Source: Primulina eburnea (Eukaryota > Streptophyta > Magnoliopsida > Lamiales > Gesneriaceae). Taken from it: a DNA stretch of 64,000 nt. A program made the position numbers and the translations under genes. Of the stretch, positions 7,576 through 50,214 are shown in pieces (positions within the stretch are counted from its first letter, which is position 1; each line of letters begins with the position of its first letter). The notes beneath the pieces are model-generated. The model made no database searches. It was not told the DNA's origin and saw only the letters and a list, made by a program, of their open reading frames with translations. The stretch is from NCBI RefSeq assembly GCF_022965805.1, contig NC_133101.1, positions 16,587,054-16,651,053 on the forward strand, read 5' to 3'.

Positions 7576-7674
7576 CAGATGTAATTATTTGTTTGAAGGT
7601 ATAATGAAAGGTCTATTCACATAGAGAAATATTGTATGATTGTTATATTTGGATCCGGGAGGTACGAAGCCCCG

Positions 7675-11511: not shown

Positions 11512-12142
11512 TGGTGATACCCCCATAAAGATCCGGGTCATGGATGACCCGGGTTGATTAATTAGAAAGCACAGATTACAGCCAATATACCAGTTATTCT
11601 CCTCATCAGCCGAGCATTTCTTCTCTTCCGAGGCAATCAAGAGCCCGGGCCATCATTACGAGCTCCTGAGTACTCTATACCCGGGCTGTCTCGAGAATCG
11701 CACCACACTCGAGTGGGATTGATATGGGCAATCTTATCTGTCAGAACAACATGGGTTTGGCGTGTGAAAAGAGTCATAATAGAGTATGGGCAGCCGACTT
11801 GTTATACTTAGCAGGTGGCACTGAAAACTAGGTAATGATGAGATTTACTACTATAAATAGCAGATATACTTCTCATTTAAGGATTCATGATTTTCGAACT
11901 CTTAAGCATACACATATACTCTCACATATATTGCTTGTGTTCTTTATTTTTCCAACCTGCTGACTTTAGCATTGGAGTGGCTACGCCGGACATTCCTCCG
12001 GCGCCCATTCACGAGTTCATTTCATTGTTTGCAGGTGTTTTTGAAGCCATTATACCTACTCAAATTTCCTAAACACTAAAATATTATTATTATCCGGTGG
12101 ACTACCCGCGTATCTCACACCCGATTCTCCTGGATTGCATCA
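11512..12142 (+). repeat. 3' LTR of the Tat element
   Basis: 631 bp, equal in length to the 5' LTR, with scattered substitutions. It is preceded by a short purine run (AGGATGGG) as polypurine tract and followed by the target duplication ATTAT. Confidence 0.93.
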
Positions 12143-13214: not shown

Positions 13215-13219
13215 ATATT

Positions 13220-24889: not shown

Positions 24890-26442
24890 TGATACAACTT
24901 TGATTGTTGCACTCCCAAGAGCAGGTTGTATAATTCGATGAGTCCGAATATCGTAACCACATAGAAGCTAAGGTAATTACAAGTCAACTACAATGTCTTT
25001 TTGTTTTCTTTTTTTTTTTTCTTCTACTTCTTTGAATCTTTAATTGGTAATTTTTAATTGTTCAAATTTTAATTTAAGCAGTTGAGATTAAATAATCAAC
25101 AATTGGTATTTTAATAAAGTTAACAGTAATGAATATTATTGAAATCCATTTGATAAAATGGTTCCAATATATTAAATAATCATATTTATATTATGTTATA
25201 TATTATTATCTTATAAATATATACACCAAAACTTATAAATGTTGTCAAGTATTTATTGTGCTATTTATATATTTTTAAACACTAAATCAAGGTTCCCAAT
25301 TTAAATGGTTGGTAAAACCAAACAAACATTTAAATGGTACCAAGAAATTAATATTATGATATATTCATATATAATAAATCAATGCATCCACTTTAAATGG
25401 TTGGTAAAACCAAACTAACATTTAAATGTTACCAAGAAATTAATATTATGATATATGCATACATAATAAATGAAGGCATCTACTTTAAATGGTTGGTAAT
25501 ACCAAACTAACAGTTAAATGGCTCCAAGAATTTAGTGTAATATATAACAACAATAAATCAAAACTCTCACTTATAAGTAGGGTATAATAATGCTTAAATA
25601 AATAAATATAACATAAACAATAAATAATGATTAAATAATATAAAACATAGATTCTTACCTTTTAATAACCTTATTATCATGCCAAGAGTTTCACCTTTTC
25701 ATCTCAACTTTAGGAAGTTAGCTACTCATTATTCAAAGTGTAAAACTTTGAATATGAAATTAACTTGCTAATTATATTTAAATGAAGAAATAAAAGAAAA
25801 ATAAAGAGAGAAAATTATGAACTCAAAGGCTTGTTCATAAAATGAGGGATATCTCAATACATTACAATGCGCTCTTATTTATAGCCAAATTTGGGGAGAC
25901 AACCACAAATAAAATATTATTTTTTTACACATAAGTCTTTGTAGGTGTTCCAAGATATTATATAATAATACACATCACTTTTGAAAATCTTCACATCCGA
26001 ATTTTCTTTTCCACATAAAACAAAACATGTAGATAATTGAGTTGTTTGAATTGTGATATTTTTTTTAACCATTTGACCAAGTAATTTGAGATATATGGTA
26101 AAAATGCTGGAGCATGGTAAAACTGACACTCCTTAGGTAACTTTATTTGTAGCTTAATTTGATCCCAATTATGAGAAGATTTTTATCTCATGATTGTCAC
26201 CAATATTGTAGATATTATCATCAATTTTCTAAAGGTCCAATAATCATCTTAATCTCATTTGCAACGCCAAGGTTATTCTTGTTTAATCGAACCTGTAAAA
26301 AAGTAAAAACTTATAATTACACAACAACTTATTTTTTATACAATTCATTATAAAACATATAATATTTAAACATTTAACAAAACAAAAACAATATATTAAT
26401 ATTATAAAACATTTAATTAATGTACAATTTTTATGTTTATCA
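24890..26442 (-). repeat. 3' LTR of the 27-kb Athila-like element
   Basis: Aligns along its whole length with 50485-52038. Internal tandem-like segments (TTTAAATGGTTGGTAAAACCAAAC, three copies near 25300-25520) are shared by both LTRs. On the minus strand it is preceded by GGTTGGGAGATG, a plausible polypurine tract. Confidence 0.88.
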
Positions 26443-27690
26443 CATCTCCCAACCAGCTTATTGCTAGTCCCTAGCAGTTTAAGCATAATAGCATACAAAA
26501 CATATTGATTAATTTAAATAGAAATGTAATCAGAACTATCCAAGTGTTTAAATTAAATTTAAAAACTGTCAAAGTTATATCAAGATCATCATAATTATAA
26601 TTTATGAAATAATCTGAGCTGATCAATTCAAAGCTTATTTTCAGGTAATTAAATGTACACGGCCTTCAGAAATTCTTAGTAAGAGTCTCAACTCCATATC
26701 TTCACTGGTTAATAAATGTTTCAATTCATGGGAACGATTTCTCTTATGGAGTTGGAATACAGATAAATGCCCGGGAAAATGGTTTACAGAATGCAGACAG
26801 ACAAATGAGCCAAATTAATCAAAAGATAGGAAATCTATTGATTCAAAATCTAGTTATTCTTATTATATATATTTTTTCCTAATCTTTTTTTTTCATAACA
26901 TTAGAATCAGACTAAGTTTATGCTTCTTGACCAAATGTTTATTTAATTTGTACAATAAATTTCTCTCTTTCTATTTTTATCTTTTTTCTTTTTTTCCTTC
27001 TTTTTTTTTTATGAGAGATAAATAAGTCGTAGCATATAATTTTAAAATTACATAGATCTTCAACACATTTTTTTTTATAGGAAATATCATTTTTTTCAAA
27101 ATAAGAACTCAAGATCTAAACAATAGATAGCCTCTTTCATTATCAATAAAAGCTCGCAAGCTGTTTTCTCAATCCTCTCCACTCACTCACAAAATATTTA
27201 TGAGTTTAAAAATTTTAGACACTCTTATCAGGTATATCTTGGGTCATATACTTTAATAACTGATTTTATCAAAATGGTTAATCACTCAAAAAGATTTTCA
27301 TAAATCATATTTTTATAGTGATCAGAATATTAAAATTGACTTTTTTCAAATAAAATTTAAACAACCTTAGATAGATTAATAAATTTTCTAATTTAAACCT
27401 TTCAAACATGTAATGTAATGATATTTTTGTAAAAAATACTAAAATACAAATAATAAACATGGTTTTATTTTAAAATAATAATAAAAATTAATTTTTTTTG
27501 TAAAGTTTGTTCTCGATCCAATCAGAATATGACATTGTCCCTAATTTCAAAATAACTATGAATAAAGAGTAAATAATGAAAGAGATATCACCTGGAATTT
27601 TATTGAAGATAACAAACTGAAACAAACGCAAACCAATCTACGACTTTTGAATCAATGATCCAACTTTATTTTCTTACTGCTTGATTGCGA
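26443..27690 (-). other. Non-coding stretch between the LOG-like cargo and the 3' LTR
   Basis: AT-rich. An AATAAA signal on the minus strand at 27598-27603 lies about 90 bases after the LOG stop codon. No other coding remnant was recognised. Confidence 0.5.
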
Positions 27691-28242
27691 TCAATTGGTC
27701 TTTGTTATCATCGAATCATGATTATGAACAAAATCTTCCAAATTATCAATTAATTTGTCGGCAGTAGAAGCAGAGATGAGCAGCCGTTGTGAATTTTCTG
27801 AAATGAAATTCTGTTCCACAGCTTTATCAAGAAATGTCAAAAAACTGTCATAATAAATATTGATATTCAACAAACCCACGGGTTTATTATGAATATTAAT
27901 TTGTGCCCAAGAAACAGTGTGAAAAATTTCTTCTATTGTACCAAAACCCCCTGGTAGTGCGATAAAAGCATCAGATATTTCTCAATCATTTTGGTGATTC
28001 TTTCACACATAGAAGAAACTTTTAATTCATCCCCAATCGTAACACCTGTAATATTTCCTTCAGCTAAGGCTATAGGAATAATATCCAAAACCTGACTACC
28101 TCCAAGATGAGCAGATGTTGAAACAGATCCCATTAACCCAATATGACCTCCCCCATATACTAAGTGAATTTTTCTCTCAGCCAATATCTTTCCAAGATTA
28201 TTCGCTGCTTCTATAAACACTTCATTTTTTTCCAGAACTCGA
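27691..28242 (-). pseudogene. LOG-like: LOG-like cytokinin-activating enzyme, 3' part (about 184 codons)
   Basis: LOG enzymes release active cytokinin bases from their riboside monophosphates in the cytosol. The minus strand reads NEVFIEAANNLGKILAERKI, LVYGGGHIGLMGSVS, GITGVTIGDELKVSSM-type sequence, then the catalytic LOG motif PGGFGTIEE (27928-27954), SWAQINIHNKPVGLLNI, FLDKAVEQNFIS and a short tail. This is the whole enzyme apart from its first 19 residues, which lie at 38813-38868 on the far side of a copia insertion. No intron interrupts it. A 7-A run at 28225-28231 and an indel near 27975 each shift the frame, so it is non-functional. It lies in the env position of the Athila-like element, same strand. 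Confidence 0.88.
28238..28242. other. Target-site duplication of the copia element (left copy)
   Basis: CTCGA here and at 38813-38817 flank the copia element exactly. The duplicated bases are part of the LOG-like coding sequence. Confidence 0.9.
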
Positions 28243-29281
28243 TGTTGGAGATCGATATAGAGTTTAGAGGGGGGTGAATAAATTCTTTCATTTGACGGTC
28301 GATTTTTCAAAGGGTGCTAGAATCCTGTTAGAGATTATAGTTATTCTTGTTTGAGAGTAAATCTAGCAGATCACAATAAATAGTGCGGAAACGATCCAAT
28401 GGAGTACGGTGAAACACAATAAAACAGCAAGCAGTAGACAATGGTTGTTTATGGAAGTTCGAAGATAAAATCTTCTATGTCTCCCCTTCTTCTGTTTGCA
28501 GAAGATATCACTAAAAAACTTTGGTTTTTACCGTACAACACTTGTACACACCCACTTTAATAGGACTTATCCTTTGCCTTCTGAATCTATTAGTTTCTCA
28601 ACACAATAAAACGAATACAGAATGTTCTGGAAAAGACTCTTTTCCAGATTACAAACTCTTCTCAAAGATATAGTAACGTGAATATGTTTGTAGAGAGAGT
28701 AAGAAACAGTCAGCACATTATAATCTCAAAAGATCAGATAACTGATATAAAGCGTGTGTTTCTTTTCTGTAAATTGAGCTTCAAGATGATAAGTAGTTCT
28801 GAGTGCTCAAATCGACGTTAGTATGTTAAAGAATACGCTCGTAGTTTTTTGCAACTTATAAACGTCGTTGATTTTGCATATATATAGAAGTCTTGAATCC
28901 AACGTCTATAAACAAAACGGATTCTTTGACTTCTGATAAAATCAGCTTTATTACCTAAATATGTTCCTGCAAAAAGCTTCAGAACAATCAGTCTTGTTTC
29001 ATACCACATTTGGTAAAACGTATTAAGTTACTTGTTCAGCATTTAATGATGCATTAAATACTCGTACTTGGTAAAGTAACGGTAACATTTAATATAAGAT
29101 CGTTAGGTTCTGATTCAGTAGAAGTCAAGTTCTGCTTCTGTTTTTCTAAATTGATAAGTACTCGAAGAGTAATACTTAGTTAAGGCGATACATGAACTTC
29201 TGCTTTTATACTATCTTGTGGTTTTACTAACGCGATCTACTGGTTTTGACTATCATCACCACAATTAAATTAAGTCTACCA
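28243..29281 (-). repeat. 3' LTR of the copia element
   Basis: 1039 bp, identical in length to the 5' LTR and closely similar throughout. On the minus strand it is preceded by the purine-rich AAAGTAGGAAA. Confidence 0.92.
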
Positions 29282-29654
29282 ATTTCCTACTTTGCGGTGA
29301 TACCAAAACCTAGAAGTTAGTAAAAAGAAGAAAATCGTTAAATCAAAAACAGATAGCAATAATAACCAAATATTTGAAAAGTAAATAAGCGGTAAGAAAA
29401 AGTTCAAGAGAGTATTAATCAAAAGATTAATCATCAGTCTCAATATCTTTGAATAGTGCATCATCATCATCATCATCTTGAGGATCTTGGCTTCTGAAGG
29501 ATGATTCTGCTTGATGATGTCCTCAAGATCTACCTTCCTCTGTCATTACATCTGTCCTCTGTTCTACCCGTACTGCTTCCCCCTTTTTGGCATCAAAGCG
29601 AGTAAGCAGTTCATCCATTCGTCCAGATAGGCTGATAATGTTGTCATTCATCAT

Positions 29655-31410
29655 CTACAAGAATGGGACTTGATTCAAAACACGATCATTCAGGGTCTGA
29701 AGAGATTGAGATTGGGACTCAATCTTGGTATCGATGGATTCCAGTTTGAAATCAGTAGCCTCCATTTTAGTTGAAATTGAGCGTAGAGACGACTCATGAT
29801 CAGCGATAGTTTGTAGAACATCAGATTGACCAAGAACGACGTCGGCGTGACTGGCCAAAACATTCTTCCTTAATAGTTCGGATTCAACTTCAAGTTTAGC
29901 CAACAATTCTGCCGTTTTAGTGACATTTTTCATCATGTGTTCTCGGAAGAATTTGGTGACGTTGACTTCACCAGCATGTTCAAAGGATATCTGTTTCATG
30001 ATCTTTGATAGTCTGTAAATATTTCATTTCAGCATATCAATCTCAAATTCAAGGTTGAAGCGCTCTTCATCTAAGGACGGACTTCTATCGAGCATACGTT
30101 CTGAGATTTCAGCTAGATGCGCAATGTGAGCAATGCGAGTTGGTGACTCATTAAGAAGGACGACTAAGGCAGTAAAAGGAGTAGGATCTGTTGGACCAGT
30201 ATAAACAGCAGTAGTTTGTTCAGCAGAAGATCTGTCAGCAGCAGCAGTGGGTTCAGGAAGTGTTCTTTCTTCTGGTTTCTCGGCTTCCTTGGCCTCTAGT
30301 GTTGAGCTGCTGGATTTTGATCATTCAAGATGGCTACCATATCTTATTGATGTTCTGCAGAGAAAATCTCTAAGTTTGGCAATGATTGAGATGGGGTAGC
30401 ATCCGATTCTTCCAAATGGTGTTCTGCCGGTAGAACTACTGGTTTGACCAAGTCATCACCCTGAGCGGCTTCTGATGCAACAGAGACACTAACAACGATA
30501 GACTAAATGACTTCATCCACTAAATCCAATTCACAAACAGATAGGAGAGAAGAAGACTGAGTAGGCTGCTTTGGGGATGCAGGAGTACTAGAGACTTTAG
30601 CTTCTGCTGGAGCTGTAGTCCTTTCCTCAAATGGCTTAGTCTGGGCAAAGTCTAGACGAAGCCTATTGAATATTGAATAGGTTCTTCAAACGTCTGTTCT
30701 TGAGCAAGAAGTTTCTCATTTATCAATCTTAGTCTCTCGGCCAAAAAATGGATCAAATTTTGATCTTGAGCAGCTGTTGGAATCATAGCATCAAAATTAG
30801 ACTGAAGAGTCTTTAAAACAGATTCCAGCTTTTGTCGTTTCAGCTGCTCAAGAATGAAAACTCGGCGTTTCATAGCTTCAATCACATTTTCAGTTCTGGC
30901 AAGTTCAAACACCTTTTCTTCATTTTTCACCATTTTACTGAATGCACCTCGTGTTCTGAAGAATGTGAGAGGATGGAAAACTCGAACCTTATGCCATTCA
31001 TCAAAGAAAGTCATCCCTTCATTGGCAGATCTCTCAATCTATTCTAAATGAAGATCAATACCAGTTAAAACAGATGATTTGGCGCAATGAAGTTGTGGTT
31101 TTGCAACGAGTTTCCCTTTGACTTTATCTGAAAATGAATCAGGCAACACGGGTCAAAAAGCAAAAAACACTGCAGTTGATTCACGAATAACAACTCCAGA
31201 TAAGGGTCTAAAGGTTGGAGCAGTAGAAGAGGTGGTAGCAGCAGTGACTGCTGGTTTAGTGAAAGGAGCAGAAACTAGCAAAGAATACGTGGCTTCTGGA
31301 AACACTTGTCTTAACGGGACATTGTCCAAATCAGCAATGGCTGCTATTTCCTTAATGTGAAGCACCGTGTGAGCCTTCTTCCTTCTTATTGCCGGGGAGG
31401 GAAGGGACAT
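29655..31410 (-). pseudogene. Coiled-coil tail ORF of the copia element (env-position), broken
   Basis: Downstream of RNase H on the minus strand, separate open pieces read RRKKAHTVLHIKEIAAIADL, FFDEWHKVRVFHPLTFFRTR, LKRQKLESVLKTLQSNFDAM and, at the end, a heptad-rich region (HESSLRSISTKMEATDFKLE). The pieces are colinear but separated by stops (for example near 31045 and 31155). They look like one former protein of 500-plus residues with a coiled-coil C-terminus. Sireviruses commonly have an additional ORF here. No enzymatic domain was recognised, and the role is unknown. Confidence 0.6.
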
Positions 31411-32560
31411 ATGCTTGAGTAGGAGCAGAAGACTCCTCAGAAACTTTTTTATCAGAAAATAAAAGATGGGCTGTCCAAAGCGGTTACTAAAAAATCAGAA
31501 AAGAGTTTTTCGTCTTATGATAATATCTACTGGAAGTTATGGAGTGCTGAAATATTTTCAGCATCTGGATAAAAACCAGTAGACACATTGTTTTATCGAA
31601 AAGACAAACCTTCTTCTGCTTCTGATAAAGCACGGAAAAGGAAAAGACAGAATAAAATAATATTCTCCCTCAATTAATGCAACTAATAAATGCACAAGAT
31701 ACTATATCTGAGGGAATGATAGATACTCTTGATATTCGTGCAAGATGTGACCGATTGGACGTCTCTTTAGCTTCCCCAAGACTCTATATAAGTACATGCA
31801 ATCTCACAAGTTAAAATAAGTACTCAAATAATAACAAATCTCAAATGGATGAAGCAAGCATTCTCTCGGAGTCTTCTCTAGAGACTGATTCAGCAGAGAA
31901 ATTGCAAGGACACTTTCTAGCTTCTCGTAAACTGATGTCTGAAGACATCCTTTTTCAAGATATGAAGTTTTGAAAGATCATTGGCTTGTAATATGAACAA
32001 TCAGTTAGATTGTTCTTTTTTATTAGGGCTAACTATGGAATCATCCCGTTCAGCAATCACGATCATGCAAAGAGAGGAGATTCCAGCAAATCATAGTTAG
32101 GCTCCTGCTGATGTACTTTGCAATACTCCAAACTGCTAATATCAACAAAATGTAATAGATAGGACAATGTAATGCATCTAGTTTTATGAATGAAATATTC
32201 CATTTTGTCATATATCTGTTTATCTGATGCTTTTTACTAAATGCAAATAAATAAGTAGATAAGCAGAATAACAAGAAATAAATAGAAGAAAGGATGAGAA
32301 AAACTTAGTCTGGATAATTTAATGCTCGATGACTCTTGGTCTTCCTCAAATCTTGTTTATAAAAGAAGATGACTTCTTCCCGTAATGATATTTTTTTCCA
32401 GTTGTAAGACGTCGATTCTATTCTTAATGAAACATCAGTAGTTGCCACAAATTGTCTCTTTTTACTTATAAACGAATTTCAATGAGTTGAATAACATGCA
32501 ACTGAAGACATCAATATACTCAAGTTAAATCAATTAAGCCAAGAACATTTCAAAAATAAG
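31411..32560 (-). other. Copia internal stretch without recognisable domain
   Basis: Between the RNase H end and the tail ORF. It may hold the truncated N-terminus of the tail ORF; no long frame or motif was identified. Confidence 0.4.
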
Positions 32561-35500
32561 AAAACTTATTCTCAGGCAGAGGCTTTGTAAAGATTTATGC
32601 TGCTTGTTGATCAGTAGAAACGTATTTCAAACGGATGTCCTTCTTCTGCACATGATCTTTAATGAAATTATGTACGATATCTATGTGCTTCGTTCTGGAA
32701 GGAAGTACTAGATTTTGCGTGATTGTTATAGCACTGGTATTGTCACAGAAGATGGTTGATTCAGAAGCTTGAACTCCGTATTCTTTAATTTGCTGTTGTA
32801 TCCAAAGAATTTGAGAGCAGCAACTTCCAGAAGCAAGGTACTATGCTTCTGCAATAGACGTAGCTATGGAAGTCTGATTTTTACAAAACCAGGAGATCAG
32901 CCTATCACCAAGAAATTGACAAAAACCACTTGTGTTTTTTCTTTCAAACTTGCTACCTGCATAATCAGCATCTGAATATCCAATAAGATTGAAAGATGAA
33001 TCATTAGAATACCATAAGCCAACATTTTGAGTGCCCTTCAAGTATTTCAGTATGCGCTTAGCAACAATGTAATGTGATTGCTTCGGGTTAGATTGAAATC
33101 TTGCACAAATACAGACAACAAACATAATATTAGGTCTACTAGCAGTAAGATATAACAATGAACAAATAAGACCACGATATTGAGTTAGCTCTACTGAAAT
33201 TCCATTTTCATCCTTGGCAAGTTTAGTAGATGAGCTCATAGGAGTAGAAGCAGCAGAGCATGTTTCTATGCCAAACTTTTTCAGTAGTTCCTTAGTATAC
33301 TTGGCTTGATTTAAGAAGATTTCAGTATCAAGTTGCTTGATCTGTAGTCCTAGGAAGAATGTTAACTCTCCCATCATGCTCGTTTCAAATTGTTCCTGAA
33401 TCAATTTGAAGAAATTTGCACATAATTTGGGGTTAGTTGACCCAAAGATAATGTCATCAACATAAATCTGTGCTAACAGAATGTGCTTATTCTTAACTAA
33501 ATTGAACAGAGTTTTATCTACTGTGCCGATAGTAAAATCTTGATTAACAAGAAATTGTGAAAATGTGTCATACCAAGCTCGATGTGCCTGTTTTAAACCG
33601 TACGGGCTTTGTGTAATTTAAATACATGATTTGGTAATAAATGATCGACAAAACCTAGAGGTTGTTCAACGTAGACCTCTTCTTGCAGTAGACCATTTAG
33701 GAAGGCGCTTTTCACGTACATCTAATAAAATTTGATATTTTTGAAAGCAGAAAAGGCTAGGAATATTCTGATTGCTTCAAGCCTTGCTACTGGTGCATAG
33801 GTTTCATCATAGTCTATTCCTTCTTCTAATCTGAAACCTTGAGCTACCAGTCTTGCTTTATTTCTGACCACAGTGCCTTCTTCATTTAGTTTGTTTCTAA
33901 ACACCCACCGTGTTCAAATAACAGCTTGATGAGTTGGTCTAGGTACAGGAAACCAAACTTCATTTCTTTTAAATTGATTCAGTTCATATTTCATAACTTT
34001 GATGCAACTGGGATCCAAAAGAGATTCTTCCATTTTCTTTGGTTCATCCTGAGAGATAAAGACAGCATGTATATATTCATTAATCATTTGCCTTCAGGTT
34101 CTTAATGGAGCTGCAGGATTACAAATAACCAAATATGGAGGATGGGATTTCCTCCAAACAAAAGGGTTTAAAGAAATTTCTTCCTAGTTTGATGGATTTG
34201 AATCGGGCTCAACTAAAATAGTAGCAGGTTCTGGCAAATCTTTTGTCTGAACAATTGGTTCTACTAGAGGAATGTCTGGTTCTGGATTTTGAGCATCTTT
34301 AACACTAGGTTCTGCATCATATTCACTAACCAGTTCCAGATGAATCCTGTCTAACCTGTTACATAAATTTGACAAGTTAGATATTCCAGGAGCGCTGCTA
34401 ACTTCATCAAAGAAAAATGAATAGATTCTTCAACATTAAGAGTTCTATTATTAAAAATCCTGAAAGCTTTGCTTACTGCTGAATAACCAAGAAATAGTCC
34501 AACATCTAATTTTGAATCAAATGTAGACAAATAGTTTTTACCATTATTGTGAACAAAACATCTGCAACAAAATACATGAAAATAAAAAACGTTAGACTTA
34601 CTCCCTTTCCATAATTCATACGGAGCCTGATTGTGCCTTTTTTTGATCATTCTTCTGTTTTGTGTGTGCCAAGCTGTGTTGATTGCTTCTTCCCAGAAGC
34701 GCTGAGAGATATCTACATCTGCTAGCATTGTTCTAGCAGCTTCTTTAAGAGTTCTGTTTGTCCTCTCAGCTACTCCATACTGTTGAGGCATTCTAGCAGC
34801 TGAATATTCATGATGAATGCCCTGTTCATCCAACTATAACTCAAGAATCTTGTTAGTAAACTCAGTTCCCCGATCACTTCTGAAGTTAATGATAGAAATT
34901 GATTTTTCGTTTGAATTCTTTTCAGAAGCTTGATCAGTAGGCAACTGTTTTGATCTTTTCCAGCAAGAAATATTACCCAAGTAAATCTGGAAAAGTCATC
35001 AACAACAACAAGTTTATATTTCATTCCCCCTAAGCTCATGATATGGATGGGACCAAACAAATCCATATGCAACAATTCCAAATACCTTGAAGTTGATTTA
35101 CTACCTTTATTCTTGAAGCTAGATCTGACTTTCTTACCAAGTTGACATGCAGAACAAACATGATTCTTAACAAAGTTTATATCAGGCAAACCATCAATTA
35201 TGTTCTACTTCTTGAGATTATTGATTGACATTGAAATTTTGATGGTTTAATCTCTTATTCAATAGCCAATGTTTATCACTAAGAGAGACAACTAAACACA
35301 TATGAACATTAATATGATCTATATTCTATCAAAACTTTGTATGTGTTGCCTTCTCTTTTTCCAGTTAATACAGTACACTCATCAGCATTTTTAACTGTGC
35401 ATGTGTGCTTCTGAAAAGCCACAGGTGAACCATTATCACATAGTTTACTAATGATAATTAAATTGTAACAAAGATTTTCAACTAATAATACATCATTGAT

Positions 35501-35700
35501 AGTAATGTTACAATGGATAATCTTACCTTTACCCACGATTTTACCATTTGAGTTATCTCCAAATGTTATCTTTTGTCTAGTACAACTCATTACTTCTGAT
35601 AATAGATTTTTCTGTCCAGTTATGTGTCTGGAACATCCACTGTCCAGATACCATGTGGAGCTGCTGATTTTGGCTTTCCTCTCCTGTTCCTACAAACACA
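32561..35700 (-). pseudogene. pol of the copia element: protease, integrase, RT, RNase H
   Basis: In order on the minus strand. Protease WYLDSGCSRHITG (about 35640-35680) retains the catalytic Asp. GAG-pre-integrase has CSACQLGKK. The integrase core has HMDLFGP and VAERTNRTLKEAARTML (Glu). The RT entry block reads [11 protein letters not shown] and [20 protein letters not shown], with the catalytic YVDD at 33453-33464. RNase H has YLTASRPNIMF, YSDADYAGS and a C-terminal KHIDIVHNFIKDHV. Frames change at several points and there are stops (for example TAG near 32840 and after FKNIKFY at 33722), so the polyprotein is dead although its catalytic motifs persist. Confidence 0.88.
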
Positions 35701-35723
35701 AATTTTAGTATCTGGTACCCAAT

Positions 35724-37705
35724 CTATTTAGGTCCACTCCTTATCATTTCTTTAGGAACCCACATTTGCACAATTCTAGGTGACCTTGTACTTCGGGTAT
35801 CCAAAGCGGCGTGTGCGACAGAAGGTCTGCTATTTCTAACAGAATGCATCTTAGAATGTTGTTCTTCCGTTATGTTTTTGTTGTTTGATCTGTATCTCTT
35901 CTGAACAGGTCTAGAATTATAGTGCTGGTAGTTTTTAACTTTCATGGGGGTTGTCCTCCTGAGTTGAATCCTCTGCTGGATCCAGGACTCTGGTGAACTC
36001 TTCCCTTAGGTTCAATATAACCCAGACCATAATGCTTCTTTCTGTTAGTCTGATCTACATTCTTTTCAATTCGAACAATTGGTACTTCAGGTTCATATAC
36101 CACACTGAATTTGACAAAGTGAATGAATTTCCCATTGCCTTTATATATCTCTAGCTTTGCACTTGTTTCAGAAGTGTTTTCATTATTGCTGAATCTGAGA
36201 CCATTACTGTCACAGGATTGCTTCTGCAATTCTTGCATCTTCTCTAAGGAAACAGAAGACTTGTTCCATGCATTTACAAAAACATATAGCTTTTGGTTTT
36301 CAGATCTCATTGTTTGGTAGACTGCATTCACTCTTTCATTCTCAGTTCTTAACTTACTCATCTCAAATTTTGAATCATTGCAGCTATTTTCTTGCAAGCA
36401 AGTGAACTTACTGACTTGATTCTTTAAGTCTTGATTTTCAATCTTAACTTCCTCGAATGATTGAGAAAGTCTCGAGTACTCTTCCATCATGTTATGCAGT
36501 GCTTTAATAAAATCAGTTCGTGTAAATTCGTCAGATTCAAAGTCAAGTACCTCTCTAGATGTCGAGGTTGGTTCAATATCTGCCATGAGACATTTGATAT
36601 CTTCTGCATCACTTTCGCTGGAATGACTTTCTGAGTCAGAAGACTCAGAGCTAGAGTCCGCCCATTAGATTTGCTTTCCTCAGCAATCATTGCTTTGCGG
36701 TCTCTTCTGTATTTGTTGTCATTCCTTTTGTATTCCTTTTTCTTTGGTCATCCTTCTTGGGCTTTGGACAACCAGCAACAAAGTGACCGATCTTTACACA
36801 GTTAAAGCACACCATGTCACCAGGTGGTGAATCTTTCTTGAAGTTCCGATTAGGGCTTTGGTAGGCTCGGTGATTCTTCTTCATGAATCTGGAGAATTTC
36901 TTCACAAAGAGAGATATAGCATCATTGCTGATCTTTTCAGCAGTCTTTTCACAAGTGCTCTCAATGATGGTAGCAGGACATGCTTGCGGAACAGCTACAG
37001 CAGCAGCAGCAACAACAGTAGTAGTAGTAATAGCAGCAAGAGCCTTTGTAGGTAGATTTGTTGAGGGCTCTTCTCCGCTTCTCACTTCCAGTTCGAACTC
37101 ATAGGCTTTTAAGTCAGGGAACAAGTCATGTAGCTCCAACTTGTTTAGATCTTTAGAGACTCTCATAGCCATTGTTTTAATGTCACATTCCCTGGGTAAA
37201 GCTCTCATCACCTTGAGTGATATTTCCCTGTTGACATACTCTTTACCAAGAGCTGCTAGTTCATTAACCAAACCGCTGAAACGTTCATCAAATTCATTAA
37301 GAGTTTCTCTAGCTTTCATTTTGAGATTCTCGAATTTCTGCATTGCTACAGACAGTTTATTCTCTTTCGTATGCACATTTCCTTCACAGATTTGGATGAG
37401 CTTCTCCCAAATCTCTTTAGCAGTAGACACATCTTGATCTTGCTGAAGGTATTTTTGTCGAGGGTTTTGTAAAGAATGTCATTTGCAACATTATCAATAT
37501 TGGCTTTCTTCTTATCTTCGCCAGTCCATTCACTTCCGTGCTTTTCAACAATTTGAAGCGCTCCCTCGGTAATGGCAACAGCAGTGTTAGATTTTAATAT
37601 CTTCAAAGGAACATCTGTGATGTCATACCACATGTCATCGTCTTGGGCTGCAAGAAGAGCTTGCGTCCAGATCTTCTAGTCATCAAAGTCTTTTTTTGAG
37701 AACAT
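35724..37705 (-). pseudogene. gag of the copia element, broken
   Basis: The likely start is ATG 37705 (MFSKKDF), chosen because it lies about 50 bases after the primer site and leads into the family sequence. A stop follows soon after. The UBN2/retrotran-gag core reads STAKEIWEKLIQICEGNVHT, KLSVAMQKFENLKMKARETL and DERFSGLVNELAALGKEY. The zinc knuckle is CFNCVKIGHFVAGC (36760-36800 region). A coiled-coil stretch follows (36586-35942: YSRLSQSFEEVKIENQDLKN). One-base indels and stops near 37430, 36690 and 36600 separate the pieces. Confidence 0.85.
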
Positions 37706-37757
37706 GTGAACCTTGATGAAGTGTGCCTAACTGTTGTAAATATAGAACAAAAAAAAC

Positions 37758-37773
37758 CTGCTCTGATACCAAT
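37758..37773 (-). other. Primer-binding site of the copia element
   Basis: The minus strand reads ATTGGTATCAGAGCAGG directly after the 5' LTR. This matches the initiator-methionine tRNA 3' end used by plant copia elements. Confidence 0.9.
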
Positions 37774-38812
37774 TGTTGAGGATCAATATATAGTTTAGGC
37801 AGGGTGAATAAACTCTTTCCTTTGACGGTCGATTTTTCAAAGGGTGCTAAAATCCTGTTAGAAATTATATCTATTCTTGTTTGAGAGTAAATCCTCCAGA
37901 TCACAATAAATAGTGCGGAAACGATCCAATGGAGTACGGTGAAACACAATAAAACACTAGGCAGTAGACAATGGTTGTTTATGGAAGTTTGAAGATAAAA
38001 TCTTCTACGTATCCCCTTCTTCTGTTTCCAGAAGATATCACTAAAAGACTTTGGTTTTTACAGTACAACACTTGTACACAACCACTTCAATAGGACTTAT
38101 CATTTGCCTACTGAAAATATTAGTTTCTCAACACAGTAAAACGAATGCAACAAAGTTCTGGAAAAGACTCTTTTCCAGATTACAAACTCTTCTCAAAGAT
38201 ATAGTAACGTGAATATGTTTGTAGAGAGAGTAAGAAACAATCAGCACAATATGATCTCAAAAGATCAGATAACTGATATGAAGCGTGTGCTGCTTTTCTG
38301 TAAATTGAGCTTGAAGATGATAAGTAGTTCCGAGTGCTCAAATCAACGTTCGTATGTTAAAGAATATGCTTGTAGTTTTTGGTAACTTATAAACGTCGTT
38401 GATCTTGCGTATATATAGAAGTCTTGAATCCAACGTCTATAAACAAAAAGACTTCTTTGACTTCTGATAAAATCAGCTTTATTACCTAAAAAGGTTCATG
38501 CAAAAAGTTTCAGACCAATTAGTCTTGTTTCATACCAAATTTGGTAAAACGTATTAAATGACTTGTTCAGCATTTAATAATGCATTAAATACTCGTACTT
38601 GGTAAAGTAACGGTAACATTGAATATAAGATCATTAGGTTCTGATTCAGTAGAAGTCAAGTTCCACTTCTGTTTTTCTAAATTGATAAGTACTCGAAGAG
38701 TAATGCTTTGTTAAGGCGATACGCGAACTTCTGCTTTTATACTATCTTGTGGTTTTACTAACGCGATCTACTGATTTTGACTATCATCACCACAATTAAA
38801 TTAAGTCTAACA
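37774..38812 (-). repeat. 5' LTR of the copia element
   Basis: 1039 bp. A GTATATATAG TATA-like motif lies around 38408-38418 (antisense of the printed strand). It is bounded on the right by TSD CTCGA (38813-38817). Confidence 0.92.
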
Positions 38813-38868
38813 CTCGACCCACAAAATACACAAATATTTTTCAATGTTTGTGCAGAGGATCCAGCCAT
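38813..38868 (-). pseudogene. LOG-like: LOG-like enzyme, 5' part (first 19 codons)
   Basis: ATG at 38866-38868 on the minus strand opens a short basic leader, then ICVFCGSSS, the N-terminal phosphate-binding strand found in LOG enzymes. The reading frame runs directly into the copia target duplication. The other side of the insertion (28242 downward) continues the same gene. Together the two parts give about 200 residues, the usual LOG length. The stop of the preceding cargo ORF is only about 210 bp upstream, so the two may once have shared a transcript. Confidence 0.85.
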
Positions 38869-39076
38869 GTTTTTACTTTCTTTTTGGTCTGTGAAAATAG
38901 AGAGAAAGATGAGAGATTTTATCGGGGTAATATATTATCATGACAAAACTATGGGTCACAGCTGTAAACAGAATAAACAGTAAAAACAATAATGACACAC
39001 ATGCATATAAACAGTAGTGTGATTGTGGCTCACAATTTTCCTCTAGTTTTACGTCCAGAAACAGCTTCAACGCCTT

Positions 39077-39728
39077 CTATGAGTCGAGGATATGCTTCCC
39101 ATCCAATTTTCTTATAAATTGGCAAACAGGGTCTTTTTTAGTCGGATTCTCAAGACTATTAAGTTGACGCTCATCTTGGAATTGTTTCCATAAACGGAGA
39201 AGTTCAATATGCACGTGTCCACTAAAATGCATCTCAAGAGTCAATAAGATGTTATCTGAAGACTCCTTACTCAGCCCATTCTTAATGAAACCATATTTAT
39301 CTTCTCTATTATTGGAAACATATCCCAAAGATCTACATCGTTTGTCACAAGTCCATCTTGCACACTTATGACAAACCCTTAACCTTTTGGCCCTTCGTTT
39401 TTTGGCATAAGTGCTTTTTCCTAATTCAGGCAAATACTGAATGAGCAATGATTGTGGAACTTCTCCTCTTAATTGGACTTTAGCTTCTATTACAAGACGA
39501 ATATCTTCTGGAATTCTTTTTTGCATTAGCAATCTCAATCTTTCACACCTACCTACATAAATTTTTCTTATAACATTTTCAGAAACAGAGGGAAAATATT
39601 TACAAATTTTTAAGAGAATTTCATTCATTTTGAAAAGAAAACAAATGATTTTTTTAATTTTTGTATCAGCAATTGTGGGAAACTGATTTAACCGACTGTG
39701 AGAGTCACGGAGTACCGTTATCCGCCAT
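39077..39728 (-). pseudogene. Unrecognised cysteine-containing cargo ORF in the env position
   Basis: An open frame with a likely ATG at 39728 (one-base frame slip shortly after it) and stop TAG at 39077, about 215 residues. A leucine-rich N-terminal half (MNEILLKICKYFPSVSENVI) is followed by a strongly basic patch and a compact Cys cluster (KKRRAKRLRVCHKCARW, then TCDKRCRSLG; C-x2-C-x4-C-x3-C). A polar tail ends WKQFQDERQLNSLE and FIRKLDG. The patch-plus-Cys arrangement recalls small nucleic-acid-binding proteins such as the cysteine-rich proteins of carlaviruses, but the spacing differs and I do not claim homology. It is not gag, pol or a standard Athila env. A splice-acceptor-like TTTATTTTCCAG precedes it. 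Confidence 0.55.
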
Positions 39729-39733
39729 TTAAC

Positions 39734-39746
39734 CTGGAAAATAAAA
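39734..39746 (-). promoter_or_regulatory. Candidate 3' splice site before the cargo ORFs
   Basis: The minus strand reads TTTATTTTCCAG with its AG at 39735-39734, six bases before the candidate ATG at 39728. Athila env-position ORFs are thought to be expressed from spliced RNA, so the site may serve that purpose. Confidence 0.4.
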
Positions 39747-39797
39747 ATATTAAGGAAACATGAAATAAAAACAAACAAAATTAAATGCAACATAAAA

Positions 39798-41860
39798 TTA
39801 AGGATCGGAAAGTAAAATAAACTCTTCTTGAAAGATTTCATTTTCAAAAAATGGTTTAAGCATTTGTCCATTTACTTTAAAAATATCGTCATTTTTAGGA
39901 TTTTCAATATCCACAACTCTATAAGGATACACATTCTTTACAGCATATGGACATGTCTATCTTGATCGTAATTTTCCTGAGAATATGTGAAGTCGAGAAT
40001 TACAAAGCAAAACTTTTTACCAATCTCAAAAGATTTTCTAAGAATTGTTTTATCATGAAATGATTTGATTTTTGCTTTATAAATCCTTGAATTCTCATAC
40101 GCGTCATTACTGAGTTCATCAAGTTCATTAAGTTGTAATTTGCGCAATTTATTGGCATCATCCATGCTTGAATTAAAAGTTTTGATCGCCCAATAAGCTC
40201 TATGTTCCAATTCCACAGGCAAATGACAATGTTTTCCGTAAACCAACCTATAGGGAGATATATTCAATGATTTTTTAAAAGCTGTTCGATATGCCCAAAG
40301 TGCATTATAAAGTCGTAGAGACCAATCTTTTCTATTTGGGTTAAGAGTTTTTTCCAAAATTTGTTTTATCTCCCTATTAGCTAATTCAACTTGTCCACTT
40401 GTTTGAGGATGATAAAGAGTAGTTATTTTGTGAGTAATACCATAATTTTTCATTAATGAAGAAAATTGTTTATTAACAAAATGAGTTCTCCCATCACTTA
40501 TCATGGCTCGAGAAATTCCAAATCTAATAAAAATATTTTCTTTCAAAAATTTGATGACGATTTTATGATCATTTGTTCGACATGAAATTACCTCTATCCA
40601 TTTGGAAACATAATCAACTGCAACTAAAATATACAAATATCCAAACGACGATGGAAAAGGTCTCATAAAATCAATTCCTCAACAGTCAAAGATTTCAATT
40701 TCAATGATAGGATTCAAAGGCATCATGTTTCTTTCTGAAACCGCACTCAATTTTTGACGATTTTCACAGATCTTGCAGATTTTGTGGGTGTCTTTGAACA
40801 AAGTGGGCTAATAAAATCCACACTGCAAGATTTTTGCAGCCGTTTTCTTTGTAGAAAAATGTCCTCCGCATGCTTCTGAATGACAATTTTAATGACACTA
40901 CTTACCTCATTGTCGTGTATGCAACTTCGAAAAATTTAATCTGTACAATACTTGAACAGATACGGATCATCCCAATAAAAGTTTTTTACATCATTCAAAA
41001 AATTTCTTTTATCTTGGGAACTCCATTGCGATGACATTTTTTCGGCCACAAGAAAATTTACTATGTTAGCAAACCAAGGTGTAGTAGTAACTGAAAATAG
41101 TTCATCATGAAAATTATCGTTAATTGGTGTCATTTCACAAGATGATCCTATTACTAGTCTCGATAAATAATTGGCTACTACATTCTCGATTCTTTTTTTT
41201 ATCTTTGATCAAAATATCAAATTCTTGGAGCAACAAAATCCATCGTATCAGTGGTGGCTTTGCATCCTGTTTGGTCAATAAATATCTAATAGCAGAAAGA
41301 TCAGTAAACACAATAGTCGTTGATCCAATCAAATAAGAACGAAATTTATCTAATGCAAATATTACAACTAGTAGTTTTTTTTAGTTGTAGAGTAATTCAT
41401 TTGAGCATTGTTTAAAGTTCTACTTGCATAATATATCACATAAGGCTTACCGTTTTTTCTTTGACCCAATACTGCATCGACTGCATAATCACTCGCGTCG
41501 CACATGATTTCAAATGGTAAAGATCAATCAGGAGGTTGCATGATAGGAGCCGATGTTAAATGTCGAATGATTTTATCAAAAGTATTTTGACATTCTTGAG
41601 TCCACTCAAATGTAGTGTCTTTTGTTAAGAGGTTACAAATGGGTTTAGAGATTAAACTAAAGTCCTTTATAAACCTCCTATAAAATGCAGCATTTCCCAA
41701 AAATGAGCGAATTTCTTTAATGGTTTTTGGAGGGGGTAAATTGGCAATGATATCAACTTTTGCTTTATTAACTTCAATTCTATGAGATGACACGACATGT
41801 CCCAAAACAATCCCAGAAGTAATCATGCAATGACATTTTTCTCAATTTAAAATAAGACCT
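39798..41860 (-). pseudogene. RNase H and integrase of the Athila-like element, 3' copy of a tandem duplication
   Basis: The minus strand reads the post-RT segment (SGIVLGHVVSSHRIEV, IKEIRSFLGNAAFYRRFIKD), RNase H ([20 protein letters not shown]), the pre-integrase YWDDPYLFKYC and the integrase core (YVSKWIEVISCRTNDHKIVI, ISDGRTHFVNKQF, SGQVELANREIKQILEKTLN). The C-terminus continues in another frame to TAA at 39798. The segment 39938-41860 is repeated almost identically at 41861-43781. Stops and frame changes are shared by both copies, so they predate the duplication. Confidence 0.88.
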
Positions 41861-43781
41861 TTACAACATATGGACATGTCTATCTTGATCGTAATTTTCC
41901 TGAGAATATGTGAAGTCGAGAATTACAAAGCAAAACTTTTTACCAATCTCAAAAGATTTTCTAAGAATTGTTTTATCATGAAATGATTTGATTTTTGCTT
42001 TATAAATCCTTGAATTCTCATACGCGTCATTACTGAGTTCATCAAGTTCATTAAGTTGTAATTTGAGCAATTTATTGGCATCATCCATGCTTGAATTAAA
42101 AGTTTTGATCACCCAATAAGCTCTATGTTCCAATTACACAGGCAAATGACAATGTTTTCCGTAAACCAACCTATAGGGAGACATATTCAATGATTTTTTA
42201 AAAGCTGTTCGATATGCCCAAAGTGCATTATAAAGTCGTAGAGACCAATCTTTTCTATTTGGGTTAAGAGTTTTTTCCAAAATTTGTTTTATCTCCCTAT
42301 TAGCTAATTCAACTTGTCCACTTGTTTGAGGATGATAAAGAGTAGTTATTTTGTGAGTAATACCATAATTTTTCATTAATGGAGAAAATTGTTTATTAAC
42401 AAAATGAGTTCTCCCATCACTTATCATGGCTCGAGAAATTCCAAATCTATTAAAAATATTTTCTTTCAAAAATTTGATGACGATTTTATGATCATTTGTT
42501 CGACATGAAATTACCTCTATCCATTTGGAAACATAATCAACTGCAACTAAAATATACAAATATCCAAACGACGATGGAAAAGGTCTCATAAAATCAATTC
42601 CTCAACATTCAAAGATTTCAATTTCAATGATAGGATTCAAAGGCATCATGTTTCTTTCTGAAACCGCACTCAATTTTTGACGATTTTCACAGATCTTGCA
42701 GATTTTGTGGGTGTCTTTGAACAAAGTGGGCTAATAAAATCCACACTGCAAGATTTTTGCAGCCGTTTTCTTTGTAGAAAAATGTCCTCCGCATGCTTCT
42801 GAATGACAAATTTAATGACACTACTTACCTCATTGTCGTGTATGCAACTTCGAAAAATTTAATCTGTACAATACTTGAACAGATACGGATCATCCCAATA
42901 AAAGTTTTTTACCTCATTCAAAAAATTTTTTTTATCTTGGGAACTCCATTGCGATGACATTTTTTCTGCCACAAGAATATTTACTATGTTAGCAAACCAA
43001 GGTGTAGTAGTAACTGAAAATAGTTCATCATGAAAATTATCGTTAATTGGTGTCATTTCACAAGATGATCCTATTACTAGTCTCGATAAATAATTGGCTA
43101 CTACATTCTCGATTCTTTTTTATGTTTGATCAAAATATCAAATTCTTGGAGCAACAAAATCCATCGTATCAGTGGTGGCTTTGCATCCTGTTTGGTCAAT
43201 AAATATCTAATAGCAGAAAGATCAGTAAACACAATAGTCGTTGATCCAATCAAATAAGAACGAAATTTATCTAATGCAAATATTACAACTAGTAGTTTTT
43301 TTTAGTTGTAGAGTAATTCATTTGAGCATTGTTTAAAGTTCTACTTGCATAATATATTACATAAGGCTTACCGTTTTTTCTTTGACCCAATACTGCACAG
43401 ACTGCATAATCACTTGTGTCGCACATGATTTCAAATGGTAAAGATCAATCAGGAGGTTGCATGATAGGAGCCGATGTTAAATGTCGAATGATTTTATCAA
43501 AAGCATTTTGACATTCTTGAGTCCACTCAAATGTAGTGTCTTTTGTTAAGAGGTTACAAATGGGTTTAGAGATTAAACTAAAGTCCTTTATAAACCTCCT
43601 ATAAAATTCAGTATTTCCCAAAAATGAGCGAATTTCTTTAATGGTTTTTGGAGGGGGTAAATTGGCAATGATATCAACTTTTGCTTTATCAACTTCAATT
43701 CTATGAGATGACACGACATGTCCCAAAACAGTCCCAGAAATAATCATGCAATGACATTTTTCTCAATTTAAAATAAGACCT
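41861..43781 (-). pseudogene. RNase H and integrase, 5' copy of the tandem duplication
   Basis: 1921 bp, about 99% identical by eye to 39938-41860 (1923 bp, offset 1923 then 1921). It carries the same RNase H, pre-integrase and integrase core. The integrase ends at the junction, lacking its C-terminal tail. Copy-specific differences include TAATTGGAACAT against CAATTGGAACAT near 42135 and a 2-bp deletion near 43122. Confidence 0.88.
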
Positions 43782-49233: not shown

Positions 49234-49770
49234 CAATGTCTGGAAACCGGGATCCCTAGGCTAGGATTGAGTCTAATCTGAGTCGTGGAGTCACGAGCAT
49301 TGTCGACAGTTTGATATTGATTATGTTTCAGATATTGATACATATCTTTGTTACCTTATTACATGCTTTATATTTGTTTATATGATTGCATGTTTCGTTG
49401 ATTTATACTGGGATTATATTCTCACCGGAATTATCCGGATGTTGTCTTGTCTGTATGTGTACATGACAACAGGTGGGACAGGTTCAGGGTTGAGGAGATG
49501 AAGAAAGATCGTGGTTAGAGTGGAGATTCCGGACTTTGATTATGATGTATAATAGGGTTGGAACACTTGACATTAGTTGTTAAACCTTAGTTTAGTTTGA
49601 ATGCATTCAGTACATGACTTGTATTGTATTTTATATACTGAGATGTATATATGTTTGATTTCACTACGTTCCGCATTTTAAAATAAAAAATAAAAAATTA
49701 GACCCTGTTTTTAATTGATTAATTAGTCCCAATTATGATTAAGAACTTGATTAGCGTCCGGGTCCCCACA

Positions 49771-50214
49771 AAAACCATGATGTAGACAAAGATTAAGCAA
49801 TTCTTTGTATCTATCCAAACACTGATAAAAAGTTTCTCCCTTTTTTTGAGTGTAAGTGATTATTTGTCTTTTGAAAGAATTTGTTCTATGAGATGGAAAA
49901 AACGTTTTCAAAAATTCTTGTTGCAATTCATCCCAAGTTCGAATGGATCCCGATCTAAGATTTTGTAGCCAAGTTTTAGCTTTATCTTTTGAAGAAAAAG
50001 GAAAAAGCTTAAGTCGAATGGTGTTCATGCTACAATTTAGATAATTATATGTGTTGCACACTTCTTCAAACTCTCGTAAATGCATGTATGGATTTTCAGA
50101 ATCTAAGCCATGAAAGTTGGGTAAAATTTGGATAATACCAGGCTTAAAATTGAAATTAGATTCATCAAGTGGAAAAACTAGACATGAAGGTGCACTAGTA
50201 CATGGAGGATTCAT
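49771..50214 (-). pseudogene. gag N-terminal part of the Athila-like element
   Basis: Starts at ATG 50214 and reads GIIQILPNFHGLDSENPYMH, FEEVCNTYNYLNCSMNTIRL, FPFSSKDKAKTWLQNL and TWDELQQEFLKTFFPSHRTN, the retro-gag core. It continues to HHGF, where the solo LTR interrupts. It is fully open, and is the best-preserved coding part of this element. Confidence 0.88.

What the first reader, a model, noticed from the sequence alone, without database searches (positions are those of the whole stretch)
27691..39728. LTR retrotransposon carrying host-like gene cargo, including a LOG cytokinin-activating enzyme
Inside the minus-strand Athila-like element (24890-52038), the span between the pol stop (39798) and the 3' LTR contains no typical env ORF. 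It holds two unrelated sense-strand ORFs: an unknown Cys-containing protein (39077-39728) and an intronless LOG-like gene (38868-38813 joined to 28242-27691, with ICVFCGSS, VYGGG and PGGFGTIEE). LTR pairing and near-matching target duplications (TATGT/TATAT) bracket both. The simplest reading is transduction of host cDNA into a retroelement, giving a mobile cytokinin gene. I know of no described Athila element carrying LOG, but I could not search.
Basis: partly seen in the sequence, partly recalled or inferred. Interest (0 to 1): 0.88.

Follow-up and report, generated by a model that had tools for sequence, protein, structure and literature searches.

The report
Jumping gene carrying cytokinin-activating enzyme
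A family of plant retrotransposons, with at least 150 copies in this genome, carries two passenger genes side by side, one resembling a plant-virus zinc-finger protein and one a cytokinin-activating (LOG-type) enzyme, so the hormone gene really is mobile; LOG in such elements was reported before, but its pairing with the virus-like gene looks new.

Summary
The LOG-like ORF lies between pol and the 3' LTR of an Athila-like Ty3/gypsy element and moves with it. In 40 of 40 other copies fetched from the same genome (probably Primulina eburnea), LOG sequence follows the Cys-ORF; 38 keep at least 88% of it. Four share an identical LOG coding sequence but have different 3' flanks: recent independent insertions. 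The genome search scored 150 of 1,307 LOG candidates; 147 lack internal stops. The 'unknown Cys protein' matches Pfam Viral_NABP/Carla_C4 (carlavirus-type nucleic-acid binding). Relatives of both proteins occur in several eudicots. Element LOGs form one clade apart from sampled host LOGs (100/98), so the capture is old, not local. 99 of 120 element-type LOGs end in an LxLxL (EAR-like) tail; 0 of 120 canonical LOGs do. The window copy is dead: split by a Copia insertion (TCGAG duplication), two frameshifts, an early stop. LOG in Gypsy elements is already in print (PMC9289625, citing Steinbauerova 2011); my searches listed nothing on the paired gene or the tail. Function (spliced accessory genes that raise cytokinin and dampen silencing) is inferred.

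The parts
50485..52038 (-). 5' LTR of the outer Athila-like element
   Evidence: LTR pair found by repeat search and borders set by script
49723..50214 (-). gag fragment
   Evidence: PF03732 Retrotrans_gag E 2.5e-14
39936..43415 (-). pol region with a roughly 1.92 kb direct duplication (integrase found twice)
   Evidence: repeat families D3/D4; PF00665 rve in 39938-40666 and 42134-42589
39798..39800 (-). pol stop codon
   Evidence: read from sequence
39734..39775 (-). pyrimidine-rich stretch ending in AG before the NABP-like ORF (splice acceptor-like)
   Evidence: TTTATTTCAGG present in 35 of 40 other copies, altered in the window copy
39077..39730 (-). accessory ORF 1: NABP/cysteine-rich zinc-finger-like protein; the Met that aligns with homologues' starts is at about 39628
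   Evidence: PF05515 and PF01623 above their cut-offs; 292 homologues at E<=1, 120 listed; alignment A1
38889..38910 (-). pyrimidine-rich stretch ending TTTTCACAG, splice acceptor-like, just before the LOG ATG
   Evidence: in other copies a strict pattern (pyrimidines + TTTTC[GA]CAG) is found in 25 of 40, the core TTTC[GA]CAG in 33 of 40
38813..38868 (-). accessory ORF 2: LOG, first 56 nt (MAGSSAQTLKNICVFCGS...), including the TCGAG target duplication
28243..38812 (-). nested Ty1/copia element inserted in LOG (LTRs 38812-37774 and about 29281-28243, K2P 0.074)
   Evidence: copia-type gag, SH3_retrovirus above and RVT_2 below cut-off
27691..28242 (-). accessory ORF 2: rest of LOG, with a frameshift in the A-run at about 28231-28225, a second at about 27980-27971, and a premature stop at 27693-27691
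   Evidence: LOG homology
27529..27541 (-). GGGACAATGTCAT block of the element's 3' region
   Evidence: found in 35 of 40 other copies
26443..26456 (-). purine-rich stretch before the 3' LTR (putative polypurine tract)
   Evidence: read from sequence; the exact pattern GGTTGGGRGA was found in 0 of 40 other copies, so the assignment is unsure
24890..26442 (-). 3' LTR of the outer element

Best explanation
The window holds a decayed copy of an Athila-like Ty3/gypsy LTR retrotransposon family that carries a two-gene accessory module between pol and the 3' LTR: a carlavirus-type nucleic-acid-binding (NABP-like) zinc-finger protein and a LOG-type cytokinin riboside-monophosphate phosphoribohydrolase. 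Shown: the module is repeated and mobile in this genome; relatives of both proteins occur in several eudicots; the element-type LOGs are one clade, with a tail of their own. Inferred: the LOG came from a plant LOG mRNA captured once, long ago, and has since been inherited with the element. The two proteins are made from spliced sub-genomic RNAs, as env is in retroviruses (an acceptor-like site precedes each). LOG releases active cytokinin in the cell where the element is transcribed and so favours division or meristem identity, and with it transmission of new copies. The NABP-like protein binds RNA or DNA and weakens silencing or alters host transcription, as carlavirus cysteine-rich proteins do. 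The LxLxL tail of many element-type LOGs may also bring the protein to a TOPLESS-type co-repressor.
For: Order pol end-NABP-spacer-LOG-3' region in 7 loci outside the window, two of them with LOG cut; 40 of 40 pieces of other copies (6 of those 7 loci among them) have LOG sequence after NABP, 38 with at least 88% of LOG. Of these 40, 20 have a 212-aa LOG ORF, 32 a NABP ORF of at least 170 aa, 16 both. 150 of 1,307 LOG candidates were scored: 147 without internal stop, 93 tied at 324.7 bits. 150 of 1,872 NABP candidates were scored, all matching. Four identical LOG coding sequences lie at sites with different 3' flanks. Pfam Viral_NABP in 31 and Carla_C4 in 29 of 36 aligned members. Clade test 100/98. 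PGGxGTxxE in 105 of 120 element-type, 18 of 20 open Primulina and 108 of 120 canonical LOGs. LxLxL end in 99 of 120 element-type against 0 of 120 canonical. In a Rhamnella protein, P0083, an integrase-like stretch (judged by eye) is fused to the NABP. LOG and NABP hits share contig lengths 8723 and 4511 with overlapping source labels. Carlavirus CRPs as silencing suppressors, with nuclear localisation and uppL induction: passages in PMC8839810.
Against: No enzyme, expression or splicing data exist here. Selection inside this genome is weakly shown: variants shared by three or more copies give N/S 0.28 of neutral for LOG (12 sites, p 0.03) but 0.47 for NABP (14 sites, p 0.13), and two-copy LOG variants go the other way (1 synonymous, 10 nonsynonymous); singletons look neutral, and the median pairwise dN/dS is 0.65 for LOG and 0.48 for NABP. 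Of the 20 open Primulina LOGs only 14 keep YGGGxxGLMG, so some open copies may be inactive. The NABP Cys spacing (C-x2-C-x4-C-x3-C in 92 of the 99 proteins in which the pattern could be read, of 120) differs from the carlavirus C-x2-C-x12-C-x4-C quoted. The AlphaFold model of NABP is poor (pLDDT 56.8), so no fold comparison was made. The copies fetched were chosen from the best NABP hits, which favours complete ones. The Primulina LOG itself lacks the LxLxL end.
Confidence: 0.72

Rival explanations
1. Passive passenger: LOG and the NABP-like ORF hitch-hike in the element with no effect on its spread, and are kept only because recent bursts copied them.
For: Singleton substitutions are neutral and median pairwise dN/dS is about 0.5-0.65 within the genome. 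In the window and in 20 of 40 other copies there is no full 212-aa LOG ORF.
Against: Full-length open LOG and NABP proteins at about 55-75% identity from several eudicots, most with motif and tail kept, are not expected of a neutral passenger.
Confidence: 0.15
2. The LOG copy is an ordinary host gene or processed pseudogene into or around which elements inserted, and the two LTRs belong to different insertions.
For: In the window alone, LOG is cut by a Copia element and the outer target duplication matches only 4 of 5.
Against: The same order recurs in 40 of 40 other copies on many chromosomes and identical LOGs have different flanks; LTR K2P is only 0.070.
Confidence: 0.02
3. The NABP-like ORF is a plant or retroelement zinc-finger protein that resembles the carlavirus family by convergence (basic stretch plus Cys cluster), not by descent.
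For: Moderate E-values (2.5e-6 for the window ORF), different Cys spacing, no viral relative found in IMG/VR, no usable model.
Against: 31 of 36 members match PF05515 and 29 of 36 PF01623 at E<=1e-3, best 1.1e-8; the PF05515 match runs over about 90 residues, not only the finger.
Confidence: 0.25
4. The LOG lineage reached the element from a non-plant source (virus, fungus or bacterium) rather than from a plant mRNA.
For: Its branch is long and lies outside the canonical plant clade sampled.
Against: The best solved match of P0122 is Arabidopsis At2g37210 (2a33, E 1.8e-63), ahead of the other LOG entries, e.g. 5zbj at 3.2e-51 and 5ajt at 2.5e-34; a Trp near the C terminus aligns with 2a33. No LOG relative in viral contigs.
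Confidence: 0.08

Closest known systems
LOG (YgdH)-domain Gypsy/Athila elements of Citrus and Populus (Alvarado-Marchena 2022, PMC9289625; Steinbauerova 2011)
   Same: Ty3/gypsy elements with a LOG domain as an extra ORF
   Different: Section 12 of PMC9289625 (read) names no second gene beside it, and NABP, Carla and 'viral nucleic' do not occur in its main text. Here LOG is paired with an NABP-like ORF, occurs in another plant group, in a large recent burst, and its relatives share an LxLxL tail. Steinbauerova 2011 is not held; recalled only.
Phalaenopsis Gypsy elements with an AlkB-type m6A demethylase (PMC9289625)
   Same: Plant Gypsy element that fixed a host-type enzyme as an extra ORF, with a proposed role against host control
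   Different: Different enzyme; activity shown in vitro there (abstract), not here
Carlavirus/betaflexivirus cysteine-rich nucleic-acid-binding proteins (PF05515/PF01623)
   Same: Basic stretch followed at once by a Cys cluster; Pfam match above cut-off
   Different: Longer in this retroelement family (about 182 aa; the carlavirus protein in PMC8839810 is 11 kDa), Cys spacing 2-4-3 instead of the 2-12-4 quoted there, encoded by a retrotransposon
Canonical plant LOG (LOG1/3 type; PDB 2a33, and LOG8-type 1ydh; the LOG numbers of these two entries are recalled)
   Same: Whole-length homology, PGGxGTxxE and YGGGxxGLMG motifs
   Different: P0122 is about 53% identical to the host LOG1 P0316, in a separate clade; basic + LxLxL tail in most relatives; one uninterrupted ORF

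Membership tests
Ty3/gypsy LTR retrotransposon, Athila-like | Two LTRs, gag, pol with integrase | tested here: met
   LTRs; PF03732 and PF00665; the reverse transcriptase region is decayed, only weak RT_RNaseH_2 matches below cut-off
Ty3/gypsy LTR retrotransposon, Athila-like | Place in the Athila lineage by RT/INT phylogeny | not tested
LOG (cytokinin phosphoribohydrolase) | Lysine_decarbox/SLOG domain over the whole protein | tested here: met
   P0122 (86% identical full-length relative): PF03641 132.5 bits against 27; 2a33 E 1.8e-63. The window fragment alone stays below the Pfam cut-offs
LOG (cytokinin phosphoribohydrolase) | PGGxGTxxE motif | tested here: met
   18 of 20 open Primulina copies, 105 of 120 database element-type proteins, 108 of 120 canonical
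LOG (cytokinin phosphoribohydrolase) | Release of active cytokinin base from the riboside monophosphate | not testable with these tools
   Needs an enzyme assay
Betaflexivirus NABP/CRP | Pfam match above gathering score | tested here: met
   PF05515 28.1 bits (cut-off 23), PF01623 21.9 (20.9)
Betaflexivirus NABP/CRP | C-x2-C-x12-C-x4-C finger (as quoted in PMC8839810) | tested here: not met
   C-x2-C-x4-C-x3-C in 92 of the 99 readable of 120 homologues. So it is called NABP-like, not a member
Betaflexivirus NABP/CRP | Silencing suppression / nucleic-acid binding | not testable with these tools
   Needs bench work
EAR-motif proteins | LxLxL motif | tested here: met
   99 of 120 element-type LOGs end in LxLxL, 0 of 120 canonical; the Primulina family itself does not
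EAR-motif proteins | Binding to TOPLESS-type co-repressors | not testable with these tools
   Motif name and meaning recalled, not from a call
Transduced host gene | Uninterrupted copy in sense orientation with several mobile copies | tested here: met
   One 636-nt ORF in 20 of 40 copies; different flanks
Transduced host gene | Host donor gene has introns | not tested
   The search with host LOG1 did not complete

The most novel reading that the evidence does not exclude
A widespread lineage of plant retrotransposons has evolved a virus-like accessory module: a silencing-suppressor or transcription-factor-type zinc finger shared with carlaviruses, and a hormone enzyme that has gained a nuclear, TOPLESS-recruiting tail. 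It manipulates the host cell (cytokinin, division, silencing) to promote its own transmission, and gene exchange took place between RNA viruses and retrotransposons.
Probability: 0.3. Interest if true: 0.9.

Novelty: new variant of a known kind. Interest (0 to 1): 0.7.

Why it matters
A plant hormone enzyme carried as cargo in probably hundreds of retrotransposon copies changes how LOG gene families should be counted: some database proteins named LOG or LOGL10 (for example Populus P0138) have the tail and sequence of the element type. If the proteins work, it would be a rare case of a retrotransposon that edits host hormone state. The NABP-like partner would link plant RNA viruses and retrotransposons and offers a directly testable silencing-suppressor candidate.

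Tried and rejected
Rejected: a plain LOG gene interrupted by chance, since the same arrangement recurs in 40 of 40 fetched copies; recent capture of the Primulina host LOG; an intact LOG in the window; 'unknown host-like' origin for the Cys-ORF.

Led nowhere: structure prediction of the NABP-like protein (pLDDT 56.8), so no fold search was run. PDB and PHROGs searches with it gave nothing. Viral contigs gave no relative of NABP or LOG. Those for LOG + retrotransposon + transduction, carlavirus/Athila (19), Betaflexiviridae EVEs (24), the Pfam names (26), silencing suppressor + retrotransposon (71) and LONELY GUY/Athila (88) listed no paper that, by title and start of abstract, pairs the two genes; the lists are cut (15 of 16 and 15 of 448 shown) and subscription papers are mostly not held. 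led to the prior art; one search listed aORF reviews; (1,156 papers, 10 listed) led to PMC8839810. The link of NABP and LOG in other plants rests on equal contig lengths read by eye from the 120 + 120 rows: 8723 and 4511 look real, 2128 may be chance, and 905, 950 and 1006 are too short to hold both. A first, stricter acceptor pattern before LOG was met in only 25 of 40 copies; the shorter core in 33 of 40. A polypurine pattern taken from the window was met in 0 of 40. A donor test by host introns stayed open because the host-LOG search did not complete.


Full report
WHAT IS IN THE WINDOW. The window is G000:C1:16587054-16651053 of an 812 Mb plant genome. Two contig lengths, 65783404 (C1) and 47997621 (C2), equal those given for Primulina eburnea proteins P0150 and P0316, so the species is very probably Primulina eburnea. 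On the minus strand lies an LTR element, 52038-24890: LTRs 52038-50485 and 26442-24890, both TG...CA, K2P 0.070 over 1539 sites; flanking 5-mers ATATA and ACATA, 4 of 5 equal. Gag and two integrase stretches match Pfam; pol holds a direct duplication of about 1.92 kb. It is Ty3/gypsy-type by domains and layout; its place in the Athila lineage was not tested.

THE LOG. Its first 56 nt (38868-38813) and the rest (28242-27691) are separated by a Ty1/copia element, 38812-28243, with its own LTRs (K2P 0.074 over 1038 sites) and a perfect TCGAG target duplication. The window copy has two frameshifts and a premature stop; it is dead. Similar LTR divergence of host and guest elements means that they inserted at about the same time within error. 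With a recalled rate of 1.3e-8 per site per year this would be around 2.7 million years ago (rate not from a call).

THE OTHER ORF. Its 217 residues (P0001) match PF05515 Viral_NABP (28.1 bits, cut-off 23) and PF01623 Carla_C4 (21.9, cut-off 20.9, over 28 residues). A database search gave 292 proteins at E<=1, the best 120 listed, with named sources Populus, Xanthoceras, Rhamnella, Acer and Orobanche. Of 36 aligned members (P0001 included), 31 match PF05515 and 29 PF01623 at E<=1e-3. One Rhamnella protein (P0083) has an integrase-like stretch, judged by eye, fused to it, so it follows pol in another plant too. The Cys spacing is mostly 2-4-3 (92 of the 99 proteins in which the pattern could be read, of 120), not the 2-12-4 quoted for a carlavirus in PMC8839810 (passages). 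I call it NABP-like, not a member.

MOBILITY. The NABP-like ORF has 1,872 candidates in the genome; 150 were scored and all 150 match. LOG (read with X at the second frameshift) has 1,307 candidates; of the 150 scored, 147 have no internal stop and 93 tie at 324.7 bits (counted by hand). Only the best are scored, so this sample favours good copies. In the first loci outside the window (L002-L008) pol end, NABP, spacer, LOG and 3' region follow in order, with LOG cut short in L002 and L003. I then fetched 40 pieces of about 5 kb chosen from the NABP list; 6 of them (L009-L014) are the places of L002-L007. 40 of 40 have LOG sequence downstream of NABP, 38 of them at least 88% of it. L009 and L015 keep only the last 106-119 nt, and in L010 most of LOG lies about 3 kb further on. 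LTR sequence is found in 36 of 40 pieces (not in L009, L010, L015, L028; inverted in L034; only 61 nt in L016). 20 of 40 have a 212-aa LOG ORF, 32 a NABP ORF of at least 170 aa, 16 both. L021, L022, L027 and L031 have identical LOG coding sequences (0 of 636 differences) and unlike sequence beyond the 3' LTR: recent independent insertions.

EXPRESSION SIGNALS. TTTATTTCAGG precedes the NABP ORF in 35 of 40 copies. Before LOG a strict acceptor pattern is met in 25 of 40 and its core TTTC[GA]CAG in 33 of 40. These look like plant splice acceptors; splicing itself is not shown.

SELECTION. Among 16 distinct of 20 open LOG copies, variants shared by three or more copies have 6 synonymous and 6 nonsynonymous sites against a neutral N/S of 3.55 (ratio 0.28, p 0.03); two-copy variants run the other way (1 and 10), singletons (19 and 58) are neutral. 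For 26 distinct of 30 NABP copies: shared 6 and 8 (0.47, p 0.13), two-copy 2 and 4, singletons neutral (21 and 53). Pairwise dN/dS, pairs with fewer than 8 differences dropped: median 0.65 for LOG (165 pairs), 0.48 for NABP (400 pairs). So constraint inside the genome is only weakly shown. The stronger argument is that open proteins with mostly kept motifs occur at about 55-75% identity in several plants.

ORIGIN. A tree of 34 element-type LOGs, 40 canonical LOGs, Arabidopsis 1ydh and one bacterial LOG puts the element type on one side of a branch (100/98), 1ydh with the canonical side (99/91, long branch). Rows were thinned by similarity and length (32 of 120 and 38 of 120 kept, plus a few forced rows); long proteins, including two odd Xanthoceras ones, were left out. 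Named element-type rows in the tree are from Populus, Diplodiscus, Reevesia, Melia, Parasponia and Primulina (names; that these span several eudicot orders is recalled). Host LOG1 is 52.6% identical to the element type P0122. Hence one old lineage, not a local capture. The canonical sample holds mainly LOG1/LOG3 types, so a nearer plant donor subfamily may be missing. Lists of LOG and NABP hits share contig lengths 8723 (P0126/P0022) and 4511 (P0165/P0015) with overlapping source labels, which suggests that the pair is linked elsewhere too.

TAIL. 99 of 120 element-type LOGs end exactly in LxLxL, as in KKRKLDLSLRL; 0 of 120 canonical ones do. A basic stretch in the last 16 residues is found in 105 of 120 element-type and 3 of 120 canonical. 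LxLxL is the recalled EAR motif. The Primulina family itself ends in KKRKLDH.

PRIOR ART. PMC9289625, section 12 read in full: a screen of 121 angiosperm genomes found a LOG (YgdH) domain in Gypsy consensuses of two Citrus species and, without a filter, Populus trichocarpa, citing Steinbauerova 2011 (not held). NABP, Carla and 'viral nucleic' do not occur in its main text. The review PMC7264820 (passages) has no word beginning with 'LOG'. Passages of PMC11728184, PMC11963269 and PMC6317226 showed neither gene named as LONELY GUY or carlavirus-like where those words were asked for. Searches listed nothing that pairs the two genes, by title and start of abstract.

VERDICT. Mobile LOG cargo: shown. 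Paired virus-type gene and derived LOG clade with EAR-like tail: shown as sequence, apparently not described before. Function: inferred.

Noticed in passing
window 7608-8407: Tandem array of a roughly 103-bp unit
   Followed up: no
window 13219-14042 and 22792-23586: Direct repeats 95-97% alike about 9.55 kb apart, probably the LTRs of another element
   Followed up: no
window 2131-2430 and 11512-11811: Direct repeat 89% alike about 9.4 kb apart, perhaps another LTR pair
   Followed up: no
window 29655-31014: Two ORFs (114 and 120 aa) downstream of pol inside the nested Copia element, only weak Pfam matches below cut-off; perhaps an extra or env-like ORF
   Followed up: partly
window 25267-25541 and 50872-51146: Short tandem repeat with a 92-bp period inside both LTRs of the outer element
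   Followed up: no
P0150 (database protein, Primulina eburnea): A second element-type LOG lineage in the same species, 66.7% identical to P0122, annotated as LOG3-like
   Followed up: partly
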